A DNA stretch of 64,000 bases from Acutalibacter sp. Its GTDB lineage: Bacteria; Bacillota; Clostridia; Oscillospirales; Acutalibacteraceae. How positions within the stretch are numbered: the stretch's first letter is position 1; every line of letters begins with the position of its first letter. The stretch spans positions 1 to 64,000 of the forward strand of contig JAFLRP010000129.1 in NCBI GenBank assembly GCA_022511515.1, given 5' to 3'. This document shows, in pieces, positions 2,353 to 62,699 of this stretch. The notes under the pieces are model-generated. The model did not search any database. It worked only from the letters and a program-made list of their open reading frames with translations, and had not been told where the DNA came from. The translations under genes and the position numbers were made by a program.

Positions 2353-4818
2353 TCATATATTTCGCAATTCTTCCAGTAATCGGAGAAGCAGGCTTCCCGT
2401 GCCCACATTGTAACCCGCGCAGCCGTACAGCCCGTTTCCCTGCCGGTCGGCAAGGAGAATCAGGGGCAGCTTGTCCGGCTCAACGAACATTCTCCGCGCC
2501 AGCATGGAGACGGTGTCCCGAAAATCCCCCTGCCACAAGTGATGATTCGGAAGCAGGGCGAGGGCCTTTTGCAGGGTGGGGTCTTGCTCCTGCTCCGCGC
2601 TTACTAAAATGAAATGCAGCCCGCAGTTCCATTGGGAGAACGATACCGCCGCTTCCCGGAGCTCGTTCAAGATGTGCTCGGTGGGCTCGCGGCCGACCTC
2701 CAGCCAGAACAAGAGGGAGATCGGGTGCCGCTCCAGCAGCTTTGCGCTGAGGATTTCCCGGCCCTCCCGGTCTTGCAGGGAAAAGGGCGGTAAAGCCCGG
2801 GCCGTCAAAAAGTCGGTATTTTTTCCTTGCCGGAAATTCAAATCTATCTGCCGTATCTCTCCCGCACACAAAGAAAATTCCAACTGCCTTGCCAACTGAT
2901 TGCCGTTTGGCAGCCGATTGGCGGTCAGCACCCGGTATGTTCCGGGCGGCAGAGAAAAGGTCAGGCTTTCCCCCGCCGGAATTTTTTCCCCGCTGATGGG
3001 GATTTCCCGCCCGGCTTCCAAACGAGTAAGGGAAAGATTTTGGAAAAAGGAAGCCTCCTGCCCCGCCGGGGCGGAGAGAAGCAGTGTTCCCCGTTCTGTT
3101 TTTCCGTCGGCGGCATAAAAATCACCGTCACGGTAGTATTCCGGCGAACCGTCCGCAGGCGATAGCCGGGCGGGAATGCCCATGCTCCTGCACAGCGCGC
3201 AGAACAGCACGGCCTTTCCGGTTTGTGAGGACGCGCCTGTCCGCAGCACTGCCCCGGGAGAAGCCGGCAGCGCGGGATAATCTTCCCGTTCCCGGACATT
3301 TTTCTTGATCCAATCCCAAATGCTTGCCGGATCTTCCCGGAATTTTTCCTGTTCCTCCGGGGAAAAAGCGGCAGAAAAATTTTCCCGCCACGGGCGCAAG
3401 GGCTCCAACCCAATTCGGGGACAAAGGAGCGCGGAAGAAAAGAGTTCCGGCGGGAAGTCCCGCTCCCATCGAAATGCCGGGAGACTGTCAAGGAGCACGT
3501 CCCGGGGCAACTCGACCGCCTGATCCTTTTCGGTGAGAGTTTCAAAAATTCTTTTCTCTTGTTCCGAGAGAATCTGTTTCTCTTCCGCCTGCAGCCGGGC
3601 CGCTTTCTGAGCCCGCAATTTTCCTGCGGCGTCCAGCCATTCCCGGCGTCTTTTTTGCTGTTCGGGGGAAAGCGGGGCAGGGTATCCGTCAGCGCCTGCA
3701 GGAGAGACAAAATCAAAGTCTGTCCAATCAGTTTTTTGATCTGCCATTTCCTGTAACATCAGCGTGACTTTTTGGGTCTCCCCCACATGGAAAAGAGTTT
3801 CTGCTCTGTCTTTGCCGTAAGCTGCCGAGACTTTCACACTGCCCAGTCCCAGCCGAAGTTTTACCTTGCCGCCCTGATCGGTTTTCAGGACGGCGATTGC
3901 AGAGAAATACGCCATATTGAGCAGGGAAAAAGTCACGTCAACACCTGCGGCAGGCCGCCCGGATTTTTCCACTACAGTGACCTCTATCTCCGCCGTTTCC
4001 GCATACCTCGACGTGACGGCTTCATATACCACGCCCTGCTCCGTCCACAGATTTGCAGGCTCGGTATCCGGGAACAGAAAAGAAAAATCCTCTTTATTGC
4101 CCGATGCAAAAGTTCTCGAGCGGATCATCATAGCCCGGGCGGCAGCGGCGGTAAACCAGCCTCTGTCCAGCTCCGGCTCCGGCTCGCAAGCCCCCAGATA
4201 CCGCCAATTTTCGCCGTCGAACACCTCCACCCAGGCGTGATTGTCGTCGCAGTGGGACCACCAGGGCACATAGACCTGCCGGGCACAAATTCCCACGCTG
4301 CGCAGAGCGTTCACGGCGAAGGTGGATTCCTCTCCGCAGCGCCCGTACCCGCAGCGGTACACAGACAGTGCGGAAGCCGTCCTGTCGTCTGTGGAGCGGT
4401 AGGTGACCTCTTCGGCACACCAGCGGTTGACCTCCAATATGGCGTCACGCAGGGAAAGATTCCGCACTCTGTCTGCAAGTTTTTCATAAAAGAAGCCCCG
4501 GCAGTCGGACAATTCTTCTGTATTGATGCGGGGATAGAGTACGCCTGTGAGAAACAGATGTTCCGGCAAAGCGGCGCACCAGTGGAATTCTTTTCGCACT
4601 CGCAAGGCGTGCCGTACCGTGTGCAAAAACAGGGACAGGTCGTAGTCCGCAAAATCGGATAAGGGCATGGTGGCAAAGACGAAGCGAAGATATTTCGCTT
4701 CCTCCGCTGTACCTTGCCTCAACAACTGTTCCGCTTGCTCAACCATTTCTCCCAGCGTCTCCCGGCGCTTCTCCCAAAGGTGCGACCTGTATTGTTCCAT
4801 TTGCTCAGAAAAACTCAT
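2353..4818 (-). CDS. Transglutaminase-like protein with thioredoxin-like C-terminus
   Basis: An 821-residue protein. Residues ~115-215 form a transglutaminase/protease-like core: GRCGEES gives Cys161, DDNHAWVEVF gives His194, and Asp201 follows in the usual Cys-His-Asp order. Residues ~270-355 look like a beta-rich domain. Around 520-570 is a second transglutaminase-like stretch (SSQTGKAVLFCALCRSMGIPAR) in which Thr-Gly stands where the catalytic Cys would be, so it is probably inactive. Residues ~690-821 look like a thioredoxin/AhpC-type fold (LPPFSLQDREG, LLFWLEVGREP) without a CxxC. No signal peptide is visible, so a cytoplasmic role is likely. The start overlaps the cutC stop by four bases (ATGA). 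The substrate is unknown. Confidence 0.72.
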   Translation of the reverse strand: MSFSEQMEQYRSHLWEKRRETLGEMVEQAEQLLRQGTAEEAKYLRFVFATMPLSDFADYDLSLFLHTVRHALRVRKEFHWCAALPEHLFLTGVLYPRINTEELSDCRGFFYEKLADRVRNLSLRDAILEVNRWCAEEVTYRSTDDRTASALSVYRCGYGRCGEESTFAVNALRSVGICARQVYVPWWSHCDDNHAWVEVFDGENWRYLGACEPEPELDRGWFTAAAARAMMIRSRTFASGNKEDFSFLFPDTEPANLWTEQGVVYEAVTSRYAETAEIEVTVVEKSGRPAAGVDVTFSLLNMAYFSAIAVLKTDQGGKVKLRLGLGSVKVSAAYGKDRAETLFHVGETQKVTLMLQEMADQKTDWTDFDFVSPAGADGYPAPLSPEQQKRRREWLDAAGKLRAQKAARLQAEEKQILSEQEKRIFETLTEKDQAVELPRDVLLDSLPAFRWERDFPPELFSSALLCPRIGLEPLRPWRENFSAAFSPEEQEKFREDPASIWDWIKKNVREREDYPALPASPGAVLRTGASSQTGKAVLFCALCRSMGIPARLSPADGSPEYYRDGDFYAADGKTERGTLLLSAPAGQEASFFQNLSLTRLEAGREIPISGEKIPAGESLTFSLPPGTYRVLTANRLPNGNQLARQLEFSLCAGEIRQIDLNFRQGKNTDFLTARALPPFSLQDREGREILSAKLLERHPISLLFWLEVGREPTEHILNELREAAVSFSQWNCGLHFILVSAEQEQDPTLQKALALLPNHHLWQGDFRDTVSMLARRMFVEPDKLPLILLADRQGNGLYGCAGYNVGTGSLLLRLLEELRNI

Positions 4819-26437: not shown

Positions 26438-27610
26438 TCAGCATTCTTCCAACAAAGCCACAGCGGAGGCCGCCATGCCCTGGCCTGTTCCCGTGAAGCC
26501 CAGCCCCTCCTCGGTGGTGGCTTTCACGCTGATTTTTTCCATTTCTACTCCGCAGGCCGCAGCTAAGTTCTGCCGCATCTCCATAATATAGGGGGCAATT
26601 TTCGGGCGCTGGGCAATGAGGGTACCGTCCACATTGCCGATGGCGTAACCGTTTTCCTTCAGCAATTTACACACTTCGCTGAGCAGCTTCAGACTGTCCG
26701 CCCCCTCAAATTTGGGGTCGGTGTCGGGAAACAGCTTGCCAATGTCTCCCAGTGCCGCCGCGCCCAACAAGGCGTCTGCCACGGCGTGGGTCAGCACATC
26801 GGCATCGGAATGTCCCAAAAGCCCCAGCTCAAAGGGAATCTCCACGCCGCCCAAAATCAGTTTTCTGTTTTCCACCAAACGGTGCACATCGTATCCATAG
26901 CCGATCCTCATTTTTTTGACCTCTCTCTCATGACTGCTTTCCGCAAATGCTTGGAGAATTGCCATATCCTCCGGAGTGGTAAGCTTGCTATTCCGATAAT
27001 CTCCCATGGTCAGCTTAACCCTGCCGCCGGCGGATTCGATCAATTGGCAATCGTCGGTATAGGATTTTCCTCTTTCCTCCGCCTGCCGCAGAGCGGACAG
27101 GTACAGTTCCTTGCGGAAGGCCTGGGGCGTCTGCACGGCGAAAAGTTTTTCCCTCGGCGGCGTTTCCTCCACGAAATCCTGTCCGATTTTACAGGTGTCC
27201 TTTGACGGCACTGCCGCCGTGGCCGCGCCGTATTCCAGCGCGTCGCTGCAGACTCGCCCGATCACTTCCGGCGTGACAAGAGGACGGGCGCCGTCATGAA
27301 TTAAAACATACTCCCACGTCGGCTGTAAAGCCGATGTACCGAAAAAGACCGATTCCTGCCGGGTTTTCCCGCCGGAGACAAAGGACACCGGCAAAGAAAT
27401 GCCGGCTGCGGCTTTTTCCATTTCCGGCTTATCCCTGTCCCGGCACACCACTACGATTTCCCCTACTTGCGGGCTCTTTTCCAACGCTTCCAACGACCAG
27501 CGGAGCACCGGCTTTCCGCCCAGAGTTTCCAGCACCTTGGAGCGCGACCTGCCCATGCGGGTGGAATTTCCCGCCGCCACAATCACCGCGCCGAATCTTT
27601 TTTCCATCAT
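26438..27610 (-). CDS. ispDF: Bifunctional IspD/IspF enzyme of the MEP isoprenoid pathway
   Basis: A 390-residue fusion. Residues 1-~225 are IspD (CTP + methylerythritol phosphate): [12 protein letters not shown], the HDGARPLV site, [10 protein letters not shown] and the TDDCQLIE motif. Residues ~234-390 are IspF (cyclodiphosphate synthase): [12 protein letters not shown] with the metal ligands Asp and His, [22 protein letters not shown], and the end [14 protein letters not shown]. The two halves carry out the third and fifth steps of the pathway. The start is one of two adjacent ATGs at 27610/27607. Directly upstream lies the structured leader element (27621-27770) that also precedes the gene at 60936. 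Confidence 0.95.
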
Positions 27611-27620
27611 TATGTTCCTT

Positions 27621-27770
27621 GCTTTCGCTTCAGCGAAAGCCTCCTTTCCATTGGGAATTGCGGATGGTTTTGCGAAGCAAAATTGCTGCCTTCATATACG
27701 GCAGCAAAAGCCGCAAAACCGGAAGGTTGAAAACTTGTTTTCAACCTTTGTCACCTCTGTTTTCCGTATG
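27621..27770 (-). repeat. Structured leader element, copy A (before ispDF)
   Basis: Read on the minus strand: closing strand CATACGG (27770-27764); perfect 12-bp hairpin AAGGTTGAAAAC-AA-GTTTTCAACCTT (27748-27723); CCGGTTTTGC (27722-27713); closing partner CCGTATATG (27701-27693, two bases bulged); GGCAGCAATTT; hairpin TTTTGC-TTC-GCAAAA (27682-27668); CCGCAATTCCCA; the ribosome site GAAAGGAGG; and a terminal hairpin GCTTTCGCT-GA-AGCGAAAGC (27640-27621), 10 bases from the ATG. The same order occurs in copy B with compensatory changes. GGTTTTGC can alternatively pair with GCAAAACC. Confidence 0.8.
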
Positions 27771-27844: not shown

Positions 27845-28531
27845 ATGGAATACTTGCAAATATTGGGGACTACCATGCTGTCTCTGGTCGTCCTGTTCAT
27901 TCTTACAAAGCTTATGGGAAACAAGCAGATTTCCCAGCTCACCATGTTTGACTATATCACCGGCATCACCATCGGCTCTATTGCGGCAGAACTGGCCACC
28001 GAGCTGGAGGAGCCTGACCGGCCTTTATTGGCCATGATCATCTACGGACTCATTGCCGTGCTGATTTCCTTCTGCTCCTCCAAGTCCAATTTCCTGCGGG
28101 GCATTTTAGGCGGGAAGCCCATCATTCTCCTGCAAAACGGCGTGCTGGACAAGAAAAAGCTGAAACAGGCCAAGCTGGATATCAACGAGTTTTTGACTAT
28201 GGCGCGGCTGGCGGGATTTTTTGATCTCAGCCAAGTGCAGACCGCCGTCTTCGAGCAAAACGGCAATGTCAGCTTTTTGCCGAAAGCCCAGTATCGTCCG
28301 GCCAATCCCAACGACATGAAGCTGCCAGTCCAGGGAGAAGACCTCCTGTGGAACGTGATCGTGGACGGCAACGTGATGGAGCGGGAATTACAGCTCGGTG
28401 AGAAAGACACTCACTGGCTGCAGGAGGAACTGAAGCGGCAAAATTTCAACAATCCCAAAGAAGTATTCCTCGCTACACTGGACAAAAACGGAACTCTCAC
28501 CTGCTTTTCCAAGCCGGGGGAGAAACCTTGA
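27845..28531 (+). CDS. YetF-like membrane protein (DUF421)
   Basis: A 228-residue protein. Three membrane spans lie in the first ~85 residues (LGTTMLSLVVLFILTKLMG; MFDYITGITIGSIAAELA; LLAMIIYGLIAVLISFC), then two YetF/DUF421 soluble repeats: GKPIILLQNGVLDKKKLKQA, INEFLTMARLAGFFDLSQVQ and VFEQNGNVSFLPK. The family has been linked to membrane charge or spore-related roles in Bacillus, but its activity is not settled. AAAGGAG lies 11 bases before the ATG. Divergent from ispDF, followed by its own terminator. Confidence 0.9.
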   Translation: MEYLQILGTTMLSLVVLFILTKLMGNKQISQLTMFDYITGITIGSIAAELATELEEPDRPLLAMIIYGLIAVLISFCSSKSNFLRGILGGKPIILLQNGVLDKKKLKQAKLDINEFLTMARLAGFFDLSQVQTAVFEQNGNVSFLPKAQYRPANPNDMKLPVQGEDLLWNVIVDGNVMERELQLGEKDTHWLQEELKRQNFNNPKEVFLATLDKNGTLTCFSKPGEKP

Positions 28532-60761: not shown

Positions 60762-60928
60762 CATCACGGGAGGTTAAAGATTGAAAACTTGTTTTCAATC
60801 TTCCGGTTTTGCAACCTTTGCGTGCCACAGGAGTTCGTCTAGCGACGACCTCCGTGATGGCAGCAATTTCGCTTTGCGAAACCGGTCGCAATTCCCAAAG
60901 AAAGGAGGGCTTTCGCTTAAGCGAAAGC
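60762..60928 (+). repeat. Structured leader element, copy B (before the GH-like gene)
   Basis: Closing helix CATCACGG-G-AGGT (60762-60774) with ACCTCCGTGATG (60848-60859); perfect 12-bp hairpin AAGATTGAAAAC-TT-GTTTTCAATCTT (60777-60802); CCGGTTTTGC (60803-60812); GGCAGCAATTT; hairpin TTTCGC-TTT-GCGAAA (60867-60881); CGCAATTCCCA; ribosome site AAAGGAGG (60901-60908); terminal hairpin GCTTTCGCTTAAGCGAAAGC (60909-60928). CCGGTTTTGC can instead pair with GCGAAACCGG (60876-60885) and so break the second hairpin. Same order and orientation to the gene as copy A. Confidence 0.82.
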
Positions 60929-60935
60929 AAAAAAA

Positions 60936-62699
60936 ATGGAAAAGTATCGGAATTTCAGGCTCTGCGGGTACGTTTACGCCTATTATTTGGACAAGACCAC
61001 GCCGGAACAAATGCAGAAAGACATTGAGTTTGCCAAGTATTACACCGGCATGGACAAGGTGTATCTGGAGACCCACCGGGCGCTGGTGGACATTCCCAAG
61101 GAGAAAATGCTGGCCGCCAAAAAGCTGTTTGAGGACAACGGCTTTGAAGTTTCCGGCGGTATCACCACAACGGTGAAGGTGGGTGACAACCCCAAGCCTG
61201 CCATCTTTGACTGCTTCTGCTTTTCCGACCCCGCCCACCGGGAGCGGTTTTTCCAGATCGTTCGGGACACTGCCGAGATGTTCGACGAAATCATTTTAGA
61301 CGACTACTTCTTCTCCTCCTGCCGGTGCAATCTGTGTATCGAGCAAAAGGGCGGCCGCTCTTGGGAGGAATTCAAGTTAGCACAGTTTGCGGAAGTCTCC
61401 CGGGAGGCCGTGGCGCTGGCAAAGAGCGTCAACCCCAACTGCAATTTCATCATCAAATATCCCAACTGGTACGAGAGTTACCAGACCACCGGCTACAACC
61501 CCGGCGTGCAGAAAGATATTTTCGACATGATCTACACCGGCACGGAATCCCGGAACAGCAATTTCAATCACCAGCATCTCCAGCGGTACATGAGCTACAG
61601 CCTCATGCGCTATCTGGAAAACGTGGCCCCCGGGCGCAACGGCGGCGGCTGGATCGATCTGGGCGGCGTGTCTGCCGACAAGAACATGTGGCTGGAACAG
61701 GCCAATCTCACCTTGTTTGCCGGGGCAAAGGAACTGATGCTCTTTAACTTTGAGTCCGTCACCCGGGGCGACAGTCTGCCCCCTCTGGGCACAGATTTGC
61801 GCCGGGTGGACGCGCTCTTGGACAAAGTGGGGATGCCTACCGGCGTCAGTGCCTACGAGCCCCACGATTCCGACGGCGAGGACCAGCTCATCACCTACAT
61901 CGGCATGTGCGGCATCCCCTTTGAGATGAAGCCGGAATTCGATTTTGACGCGGAAGTGCTGTTCTTAGCCGAAAATGCCGCCCATGACCCGCAGGTGGTG
62001 GAAAAGCTCAAGAAATACGTGGCAAACGGCGGCCGCGCGGTGATTACCAGCGGGTTCTTGAAAGCCACTTGGGACCGGGGCATCCGGGACATGACCAGTC
62101 TCATTCCCACAGGCCGCAGAGTTTCCGGCACCAAGTACCAGATCGACTATCTCAACATTTACGACGGGAGCATTCATGAAGCGGAAGAGCCCGCCACCTT
62201 TGAGGTATTCACCGCGAAAAACAACGCCACCTGGAATGATGTGCTCCTGCACGTCAACGATTTCTGCACTCCGGTTTTGACCCAGGATTTCTACGGCGAC
62301 GGCCTCCTGAACACCCTGATCGTCCCCGACAATTTCGGAGACCTCTACCGCATTCCCGGCGGAATTTGGGCGTTCATTTCCAAGGTCTTTACCCGGGGGC
62401 GCAAGCTGTTTTTGGGCACGAAGCCGAAGGCCAATCTCTTTACCTACGACAACGGCGTGTTCGCGGTGTACAACTACCACTCCTACAATTCACCGATAGA
62501 GCTGACGCTTCTCGACGACAACTACATTGGCTTTGAGGACTTGGAAACCGGCGCGCGCACCACAGAGCCTCACCATGTGAATCCCCTGCCCCGCCGGATG
62601 GGAGATTCCGCCACCTTCCGTCCCGAGCCGCTGGAGCGGGTCTTCCGCCTGCAGATCGCGCCGGGCGAATTTAAATTCTACAAGCTGATCAAAAAGTGA
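60936..62699 (+). CDS. Putative glycoside hydrolase-like protein (TIM barrel + GATase-like domain)
   Basis: A 587-residue protein with no signal peptide. Residues 1-~310 look like a (beta/alpha)8 barrel (YVYAYYLDKTTPEQ, EIILDDYFFSSCRCNLC, IIKYPNWYESYQTTGY); the paired DD and the C-x-C-x2-C cluster are notable. Residues ~345-440 resemble the glutamine-amidotransferase-like middle domain of GH42-type enzymes (LFLAENAAHDPQVVEKLKKY, GGRAVITSGFL), and ~490-587 a beta-sandwich. I do not recognise the CAZy family. The GGAGG is 27 bases from the ATG with a 20-base hairpin between; looped out, spacing is 7. It precedes a GH5 gene by 26 bases, so both likely act on one glycan. Confidence 0.62.
   Translation: MEKYRNFRLCGYVYAYYLDKTTPEQMQKDIEFAKYYTGMDKVYLETHRALVDIPKEKMLAAKKLFEDNGFEVSGGITTTVKVGDNPKPAIFDCFCFSDPAHRERFFQIVRDTAEMFDEIILDDYFFSSCRCNLCIEQKGGRSWEEFKLAQFAEVSREAVALAKSVNPNCNFIIKYPNWYESYQTTGYNPGVQKDIFDMIYTGTESRNSNFNHQHLQRYMSYSLMRYLENVAPGRNGGGWIDLGGVSADKNMWLEQANLTLFAGAKELMLFNFESVTRGDSLPPLGTDLRRVDALLDKVGMPTGVSAYEPHDSDGEDQLITYIGMCGIPFEMKPEFDFDAEVLFLAENAAHDPQVVEKLKKYVANGGRAVITSGFLKATWDRGIRDMTSLIPTGRRVSGTKYQIDYLNIYDGSIHEAEEPATFEVFTAKNNATWNDVLLHVNDFCTPVLTQDFYGDGLLNTLIVPDNFGDLYRIPGGIWAFISKVFTRGRKLFLGTKPKANLFTYDNGVFAVYNYHSYNSPIELTLLDDNYIGFEDLETGARTTEPHHVNPLPRRMGDSATFRPEPLERVFRLQIAPGEFKFYKLIKK

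What the first reader, a model, noticed from the sequence alone, without database searches (positions are those of the whole stretch)
27621..27770. Covarying structured leader element shared by ispDF and a glycoside-hydrolase-like gene
Copy A (27621-27770, minus) and copy B (60762-60928, plus) lie in the same orientation directly before a start codon and share five parts in order: a closing helix, a 12-bp hairpin, a small hairpin, the Shine-Dalgarno and a terminal hairpin. Where the copies differ the pairs are kept: hairpin 1 AAGGTTG/CAACCTT versus AAGATTG/CAATCTT; hairpin 2 TTTTGC/GCAAAA versus TTTCGC/GCGAAA; closing helix CATACGG versus CATCACGG with matching partners. Compensatory change indicates selection on RNA structure. 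The downstream genes (isoprenoid synthesis; glycan breakdown) share no clear pathway, so this could be an undescribed riboswitch or a mobile leader that carries its own ribosome site.
Basis: partly seen in the sequence, partly recalled or inferred. Interest (0 to 1): 0.87.

Follow-up and report, generated by a model that had tools for sequence, protein, structure and literature searches.

The report
Mobile hairpin leader inserted before genes
The window holds two of about 65 copies of an undescribed, hairpin-rich DNA element that inserts between a gene's ribosome-binding site and its start codon and brings a replacement binding site with it; relatives occur patchily across a whole bacterial order.

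Summary
The two leaders are real but are not a pair. They belong to a dispersed family with 68 non-overlapping covariance-model hits in this genome (65 with an ORF start at the 3' end), 42 in a sister species and further copies in about 17 genera of the order. Rfam has none. Almost every copy lies on the coding strand and ends 0-3 nt before a start codon. Downstream genes are unrelated (enolase, uvrB, purA, ispDF and others), which argues against an ordinary riboswitch. The native Shine-Dalgarno (SD) is usually still present just 5' of the element, and joining the flanks restores canonical SD-ATG spacing. Orthologues in the sister species lack the element, and the reverse also holds. So the element inserted between native SD and ATG and supplies its own SD. 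In the main type a hairpin between that SD and the ATG shortens the distance from about 32 to 12 nt, as shown for phage T4 genes 25 and 38. Covariation is very strong (40 of 41 pairs across the order), but G-U wobbles are no commoner than A-C mismatches (tRNA control 38:0), so the palindromes look maintained as DNA, not by RNA selection. The mobilising enzyme is unknown; Y1 transposase is absent from this genome.

The parts
27749..27759 (-). Native 5' flank of copy A with the probable original Shine-Dalgarno (CAGAGGTGACA), left stranded upstream of the element
   Evidence: Joining this flank to the last nt before the ATG gives SD-ATG spacing 7; the same pattern holds in most copies
27723..27748 (-). 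Copy A, hairpin 1 (11-bp perfect palindrome AAGGTTGAAAA/TTTTCAACCTT)
   Evidence: all 11 pairs covary across the order
27658..27716 (-). Copy A, core: closing helix (27709-27716 with 27658-27665) enclosing two hairpins (27683-27707 and 27668-27682)
   Evidence: Structure tested on A1 and A3
27640..27647 (-). Copy A, element-borne Shine-Dalgarno AAAGGAGG
   Evidence: SD core is among the most conserved unpaired positions in this genome's copies: A 0.99, A 0.91, A 0.94, G 0.99, G 0.97
27621..27640 (-). Copy A, terminal hairpin GCTTTCGC-TGAA-GCGAAAGC in the spacer between SD and start codon
   Evidence: 57 such SD-hairpin modules in this genome, 54 with an ORF start 7-16 nt downstream
27605..27620 (-). 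Copy A, tail (AAGGAACATA) and start codons 27608-27610 and 27605-27607; the second matches the start of the G015 orthologue
26438..27610 (-). Downstream gene of copy A: IspDF (MEP cytidylyltransferase plus YgbB/IspF)
   Evidence: PF01128 and PF02542
60768..60776 (+). Native flank of copy B with the original SD GGGAGG
60777..60928 (+). Copy B: hairpin 1 (60777-60802), core with an extra hairpin module, SD AAAGGAGG (60901-60908), terminal hairpin (60909-60928)
   Evidence: CM hit 122.9 bits at 60777-60944
60936..62699 (+). Downstream gene of copy B, 587 aa, no confident Pfam domain
   Evidence: 'glycoside-hydrolase-like' not confirmed
27845..28531 (+). Divergent neighbour gene WITHOUT an element here (GAGAAAGGAGAAGCTTTCTTT-ATG); its sister-species orthologue carries a type-beta element between SD and ATG
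   Evidence: L201/L316 comparison, 87% identity

Best explanation
This is a non-autonomous, dispersed, hairpin-rich mobile element that inserts in one orientation into translation-initiation regions, between the native SD and the native start codon, 0-3 nt from the ATG. It leaves the old SD stranded about 100-200 nt upstream and supplies a new SD near its 3' end. Type alpha then has a strong hairpin in the SD-ATG spacer, which folds a 32-nt gap down to about 12 nt so that the gene can still be translated; type beta has the SD 12-14 nt from the ATG without that hairpin. Shown here: dispersal, position, orientation, empty sites, conserved SD, covarying palindromes. Inferred: active transposition, use of the new SD, the hairpin bringing SD and ATG together, and a DNA-level role of the palindromes (single-stranded hairpins read by the mobilising enzyme). 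Not known: that enzyme and how gene starts are recognised.
For: 68 non-overlapping hits in this genome and 42 in sister species G015. A strict ATG-plus-ORF test at the 3' end is met by 55/68, against 3.7% for random positions. A blastn set whose query stops short of the start codon shows the same placement. Empty orthologous sites: eno, purA, uvrB, cinA, rlmH, pyrB, tex and tatD carry the element here but not in G015; about ten G015 insertions are absent here. Joined flanks give SD spacing peaking at 5-7 nt (29/46 here, 11/17 in G015), a flat distribution with shifted flanks, and 6-8 nt in native genes. Element SD core 91-99% conserved. Raw SD-ATG median 32 nt, 12 without the hairpin. Order-wide: 22/394 genomes, 17 genera, same architecture, 25 of 36 hits with a start codon at the 3' end. 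40/41 pairs with two-sided changes, 93.9% of cells paired against 68.5% in shuffles. GU:AC near 1 against 38:0 in tRNAs.
Against: No transposase, terminal inverted repeat or target-site duplication was identified, and no autonomous copy was seen. Two insertions (vatE, ispDF) are shared with G015, so some copies are old. In tatD the whole intergenic spacer differs, so not every case is a clean insertion. The tail up to about 2 nt from the ATG is conserved, so the exact 3' boundary is uncertain. A tandem array in G310 (L363) is not at an ORF start. A few decayed copies have lost the start codon or hairpin. The model includes the ATG as its last columns, which biases end alignment (the ORF after it is not modelled).
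Confidence: 0.77

Rival explanations
1. A cis-regulatory RNA leader (riboswitch, thermosensor or protein-bound operator) controlling a regulon; copies are kept for regulation.
For: Strict 5'-UTR position, strong covariation, conserved AATTCC...AAAGGA motif that can weakly pair the SD.
Against: Downstream genes share no pathway; nearly all tested sites are not shared between sister species; stems show no wobble preference, unlike tRNAs; no Rfam match.
Confidence: 0.1
2. A REP or IS200/IS605-type single-strand (Y1/HUH) element whose target is the SD sequence AGGAGG; a GGAG tetranucleotide lies 5' of the terminal hairpin as in REPs.
For: Fixed orientation, no target duplication, hairpins near both ends, GGAGG directly 5' of the element and of the terminal hairpin; DNA-type symmetry of the stems.
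Against: No Y1_Tnp (PF01797) in this genome (94% complete), in G008 (100%), or in the multi-copy genomes G439 and G501; present in several genomes with no or few elements. The 3' junction is tied to the ATG as much as the 5' junction is tied to the SD.
Confidence: 0.15
3. A classical MITE moved in trans by a DDE transposase, with insertions elsewhere removed by selection.
For: High copy number, palindromic, intergenic, non-coding.
Against: No terminal inverted repeats or consistent target duplication; selection alone does not explain placement within about 3 nt of the ATG with almost no copies in other intergenic sites.
Confidence: 0.07
4. Spread by gene conversion or recombination between leaders using SD and start-codon microhomology, without a dedicated transposition system.
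For: SD-like repeats at both sides; minimal SD-hairpin modules, nested copies (L064, L082, L223) and mixed modules fit recombination.
Against: Does not by itself explain spread into element-free genes with only about 6-8 nt of shared sequence, or near-perfect palindromes across the order.
Confidence: 0.15

Closest known systems
BOX elements of Streptococcus pneumoniae (PMC3049150)
   Same: Modular composite of hairpin units with optional internal modules; dispersed in one lineage; transcribed; can change downstream expression
   Different: BOX copies are not known to sit between SD and ATG in one orientation and do not supply the gene's SD; BOX ends resemble ISSpn2 ends, none found here
REP / GTAG-tagged palindromes with RAYT (Y1) transposases (PMC3733652)
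   Same: Short palindromes, many copies, G-rich tetranucleotide 5' of a hairpin (from own knowledge of REPs), DNA-type stem symmetry
   Different: 100-200 nt multi-hairpin unit, found before start codons; no Y1 transposase in this genome
Split (accommodated) ribosome-binding sites of phage T4 genes 25 and 38 (PMC3014915)
   Same: A hairpin between SD and AUG shortens the distance (27 to 11 and 22 to 5 nt there; about 32 to 12 nt here)
   Different: Single phage genes there; here a dispersed repeat installs the arrangement at about 55 genes
Correia elements, ERIC, MITEs (as reviewed in PMC3049150)
   Same: Small non-autonomous repeats in transcribed intergenic DNA
   Different: MITEs are characterised by terminal inverted repeats and target duplication, not seen here; not restricted to gene starts
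TAACTGA direct repeats of marine Beggiatoaceae (PMC4679880)
   Same: Lineage-specific multi-copy repeats, proposed post-transcriptional role
   Different: Short direct repeats, no SD cargo described in the abstract read here

Membership tests
Riboswitch / Rfam cis-regulatory family | Match to a described Rfam family | tested here: not met
   No gathering-level match in the window or in 17 further loci; only chance-level weak hits
Riboswitch / Rfam cis-regulatory family | Downstream genes share a pathway or ligand | tested here: not met
   Unrelated genes
Riboswitch / Rfam cis-regulatory family | Ligand-dependent change of structure or expression | not testable with these tools
   Needs in-line probing or reporters
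MITE | Terminal inverted repeats | tested here: not met
   5' end (AAGTTTGAAAAC) and 3' end (GGTYATAA) are not inverted repeats of each other (read)
MITE | Target-site duplication | tested here: inconclusive
   None consistent; a 2-nt AT beside type-beta copies cannot be excluded
MITE | Partner insertion sequence with matching ends | not tested
   No autonomous copy seen among fetched loci; no whole-genome scan for partners
REP / RAYT or IS200-IS605 derived element | Y1 (HUH) transposase in the genome | tested here: not met
   PF01797 absent in G000 and G008 and in several multi-copy genomes
REP / RAYT or IS200-IS605 derived element | Fixed target 5' of the element, one orientation | tested here: met
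   SD-like purine motif 5' of most copies (score 5.1 against 3.7 for random positions), one orientation
BOX-like modular repeat | Modular composition with optional internal hairpin units | tested here: met
   Optional hairpins and minimal forms
Accommodated RBS (T4 gene 25 type) | Hairpin between SD and AUG that shortens the spacing | tested here: met
   Geometry only: 32 to 12 nt, hairpin covaries
Accommodated RBS (T4 gene 25 type) | Destabilising the hairpin lowers translation | not testable with these tools
   Needs reporter fusions

The most novel reading that the evidence does not exclude
An order-wide class of mobile DNA element whose insertion machinery recognises translation-initiation sites themselves (the SD-spacer-AUG signature), possibly through ssDNA hairpins or an mRNA- or ribosome-linked step, and which carries a self-contained, hairpin-accommodated ribosome-binding site so that insertion even in front of essential genes is harmless.
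Probability: 0.4. Interest if true: 0.95.

Novelty: new variant of a known kind. Interest (0 to 1): 0.86.

Why it matters
Small repeats are usually found where they do least harm. This one goes to the most sensitive few bases of a gene, between ribosome-binding site and start codon, even in genes such as enolase, purA and ispDF, and replaces the site it displaces. It would be a natural source of ready-made split ribosome-binding sites, a lineage-wide rewiring of translation starts, a trap for gene-start annotation, and evidence for an unknown insertion-target mechanism. It also shows that strong covariation need not mean RNA selection: the wobble/mismatch ratio separates DNA palindromes from RNA helices.

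Tried and rejected
Two-copy riboswitch: rejected by copy number and gene content. Y1/RAYT mobilisation: not supported. Phage or plasmid origin: no matches in phage or plasmid records or viral contigs. Pattern scan of genome contigs gave mostly chance hits, but one true copy (L038) led to the SIG516 genome. Pattern was mis-registered and is ignored. Family-wide SD-hairpin pattern is too specific; the covariance model finds the wider spread. Literature searches found no description of such an element in the open-access library; subscription journals were not covered.

Full report
Observation. Copies A and B are as described in sequence. A blastn search of the own genome with copy A gives 54 matching pieces on many contigs, so this is a high-copy repeat. 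The terminal SD-plus-hairpin module alone occurs 53 times at up to 3 mismatches, with 0 matches of the reversed control pattern. A covariance model built from 16 copies finds 71 hits in this genome, 45 in sister species G015, 3 in G008, and single or few hits in some other members of the genus.

Placement. All fetched copies were compared with ORFs. Of 57 SD-hairpin modules, 54 have a start codon with an ORF of at least 60 codons 7-16 nt downstream, most often 13 nt. Of 68 non-overlapping model hits, 65 have an ORF start near the 3' end. Under the strict test (ATG, ORF of at least 100 codons or running off the contig, -6 to +3) it is 55/68 here and 22/42 in G015, against 3.7% for random positions. 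The start codons used are plausible in many cases because conserved Pfam domains begin at residues 1-8 (Hsp33, PurA, SPOUT methyltransferase, CinA, Rrf2, OTCace, IspD).

Genes. The downstream genes cover isoprenoid synthesis, glycolysis, purine and pyrimidine synthesis, DNA repair, chaperones, transport, iron, cell wall, regulators and unknowns. No pathway is shared. Copy B's gene has no confident Pfam domain, so 'glycoside-hydrolase-like' stays unconfirmed.

Insertion between SD and ATG. In most copies a purine-rich SD-like motif lies directly 5' of hairpin 1 (best match to AAGGAGG 5.1 of 7 against 3.7 at random positions and 4.7 in shuffled flanks). Joining the 5' flank to the last two nt and the ATG gives SD-ATG spacings of 5-7 nt in 29 of 46 copies here and 11 of 17 in G015, but a flat distribution for flanks taken 40 nt further upstream; native genes peak at 6-8. 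Orthologues in G015 of eno, purA, uvrB, cinA, rlmH, pyrB, tex and tatD have an ordinary SD and no element, and about ten element-bearing G015 genes have element-free orthologues here, many 80-96% identical in protein. One of these is the gene at 27845 in this window, next to copy A. Only vatE (78% identity, both with an element) and ispDF (a decayed remnant in G015, read) look shared. Loss in one lineage could explain an absence alone, but not the stranded native SD at canonical spacing; I therefore read these as insertions.

Anatomy. 5' to 3': hairpin 1 (about 10 bp, near-perfect palindrome), a closed core with two hairpins, optional extra hairpins, the strand AATTCC, the SD AAAGGA/AAAGGAGG, the terminal hairpin (type alpha), and a tail of consensus ATGGTCATAANT before the ATG. 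Type beta (many of the G015 copies) lacks the terminal hairpin and ends GGAATGGNGATTTTTATG. Minimal forms consist of SD, hairpin and tail only. Nested copies occur (L064, L082, L223). In the copies of this genome the SD core AAAGG is 91-99% conserved. The distance from the SD to the ATG is 32 nt (median), 12 nt with the hairpin excluded. T4 genes 25 and 38 use the same device, 27 to 11 and 22 to 5 nt (PMC3014915).

Breadth. The MAG SIG516 (Oscillospiraceae by its record title) has 17 hits. In 394 genomes of the order, 22 genomes in 17 genera have hits, several with 5-8, where the scan scored at most 8 candidates per genome. Architecture and tail are the same and 25 of 36 distinct hits have a start codon at the 3' end. 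No match in Rfam, phages, plasmids or viral contigs. The genome's own name was not available; I place it in the Clostridia by inference only.

Covariation and what it means. In the genus alignment 17 of 41 pairs have two-sided changes. In the order alignment it is 40 of 41, with 93.9% of cells paired (68.5% in shuffles; 36-50% when slid) and a covariation score of 0.546 against 0.166. These alignments were fitted to the model and lean towards it, but the margin is large. The changes are symmetric: G-U 53 versus A-C 41 here, 41 versus 24 in G015, 28 versus 25 across the order. tRNAs from the same loci give 38 versus 0 (the tRNA finder itself favours pairs). RNA helices tolerate wobbles, DNA palindromes do not gain from them. 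I infer that perfect palindromes are needed for spread as DNA, and that after insertion the stems decay without much RNA-level selection, while the SD is kept.

Mechanism, shown and inferred. Shown: dispersed copies, fixed orientation, insertion between SD and ATG, replacement SD, spacer hairpin. Inferred: transposition, function of the replacement SD, hairpin-accommodated initiation, DNA-level hairpin recognition. Unknown: the enzyme. The obvious candidate, a Y1/HUH transposase of the REP or IS200/IS605 kind, is absent from this genome and from G008, G439, G501 and G277.

Verdict. Filed conservatively as a new variant of small interspersed repeats, because copy number and palindromes fit that kind while the target site and the cargo do not fit any described family I could test.

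Noticed in passing
L188, L189, L190, L192, L194, L196, L197, L200-L204, L206-L210, L212, L213, L216 (G015): A second subtype (beta) without the terminal hairpin, in which ATTCC...GGAAT can pair around the SD; also at gene starts.
   Followed up: partly
L082:2650-2819, L064:3900-4000, L223:1203-1386: Nested or tandem insertions: a full element placed after an earlier minimal module, or directly after the SD of an earlier element.
   Followed up: partly
L100, L102, L105, L106, L109, L110, L113: Minimal modules: only SD, spacer hairpin and tail before the ATG; either deletion products through the two SD repeats or a separate mobile unit.
   Followed up: partly
L344, L348, L365, L225 and others across the order: The tail ATGGTCATAANTATG before the start codon is conserved across families and often puts a second in-frame ATG 12 nt upstream.
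   Followed up: no
L072:2680-2823 (-) and 2903-3030 (+): Two divergent genes, each with its own element, back to back.
   Followed up: no
L363 (G310 contig 11): Tandem related units not at an ORF start, an exception to the placement rule.
   Followed up: no
L012, L013, L229 (G026, G020, G022): Other palindromic repeats sharing the motif GCAATTTTGCTTCGCAAAACC upstream of genes with an ordinary SD; possibly a related family.
   Followed up: no
L071:49-191 and L085:1-84: Contigs C173 and C152 end in the same element copy, so repeats of this family break the assembly.
   Followed up: no
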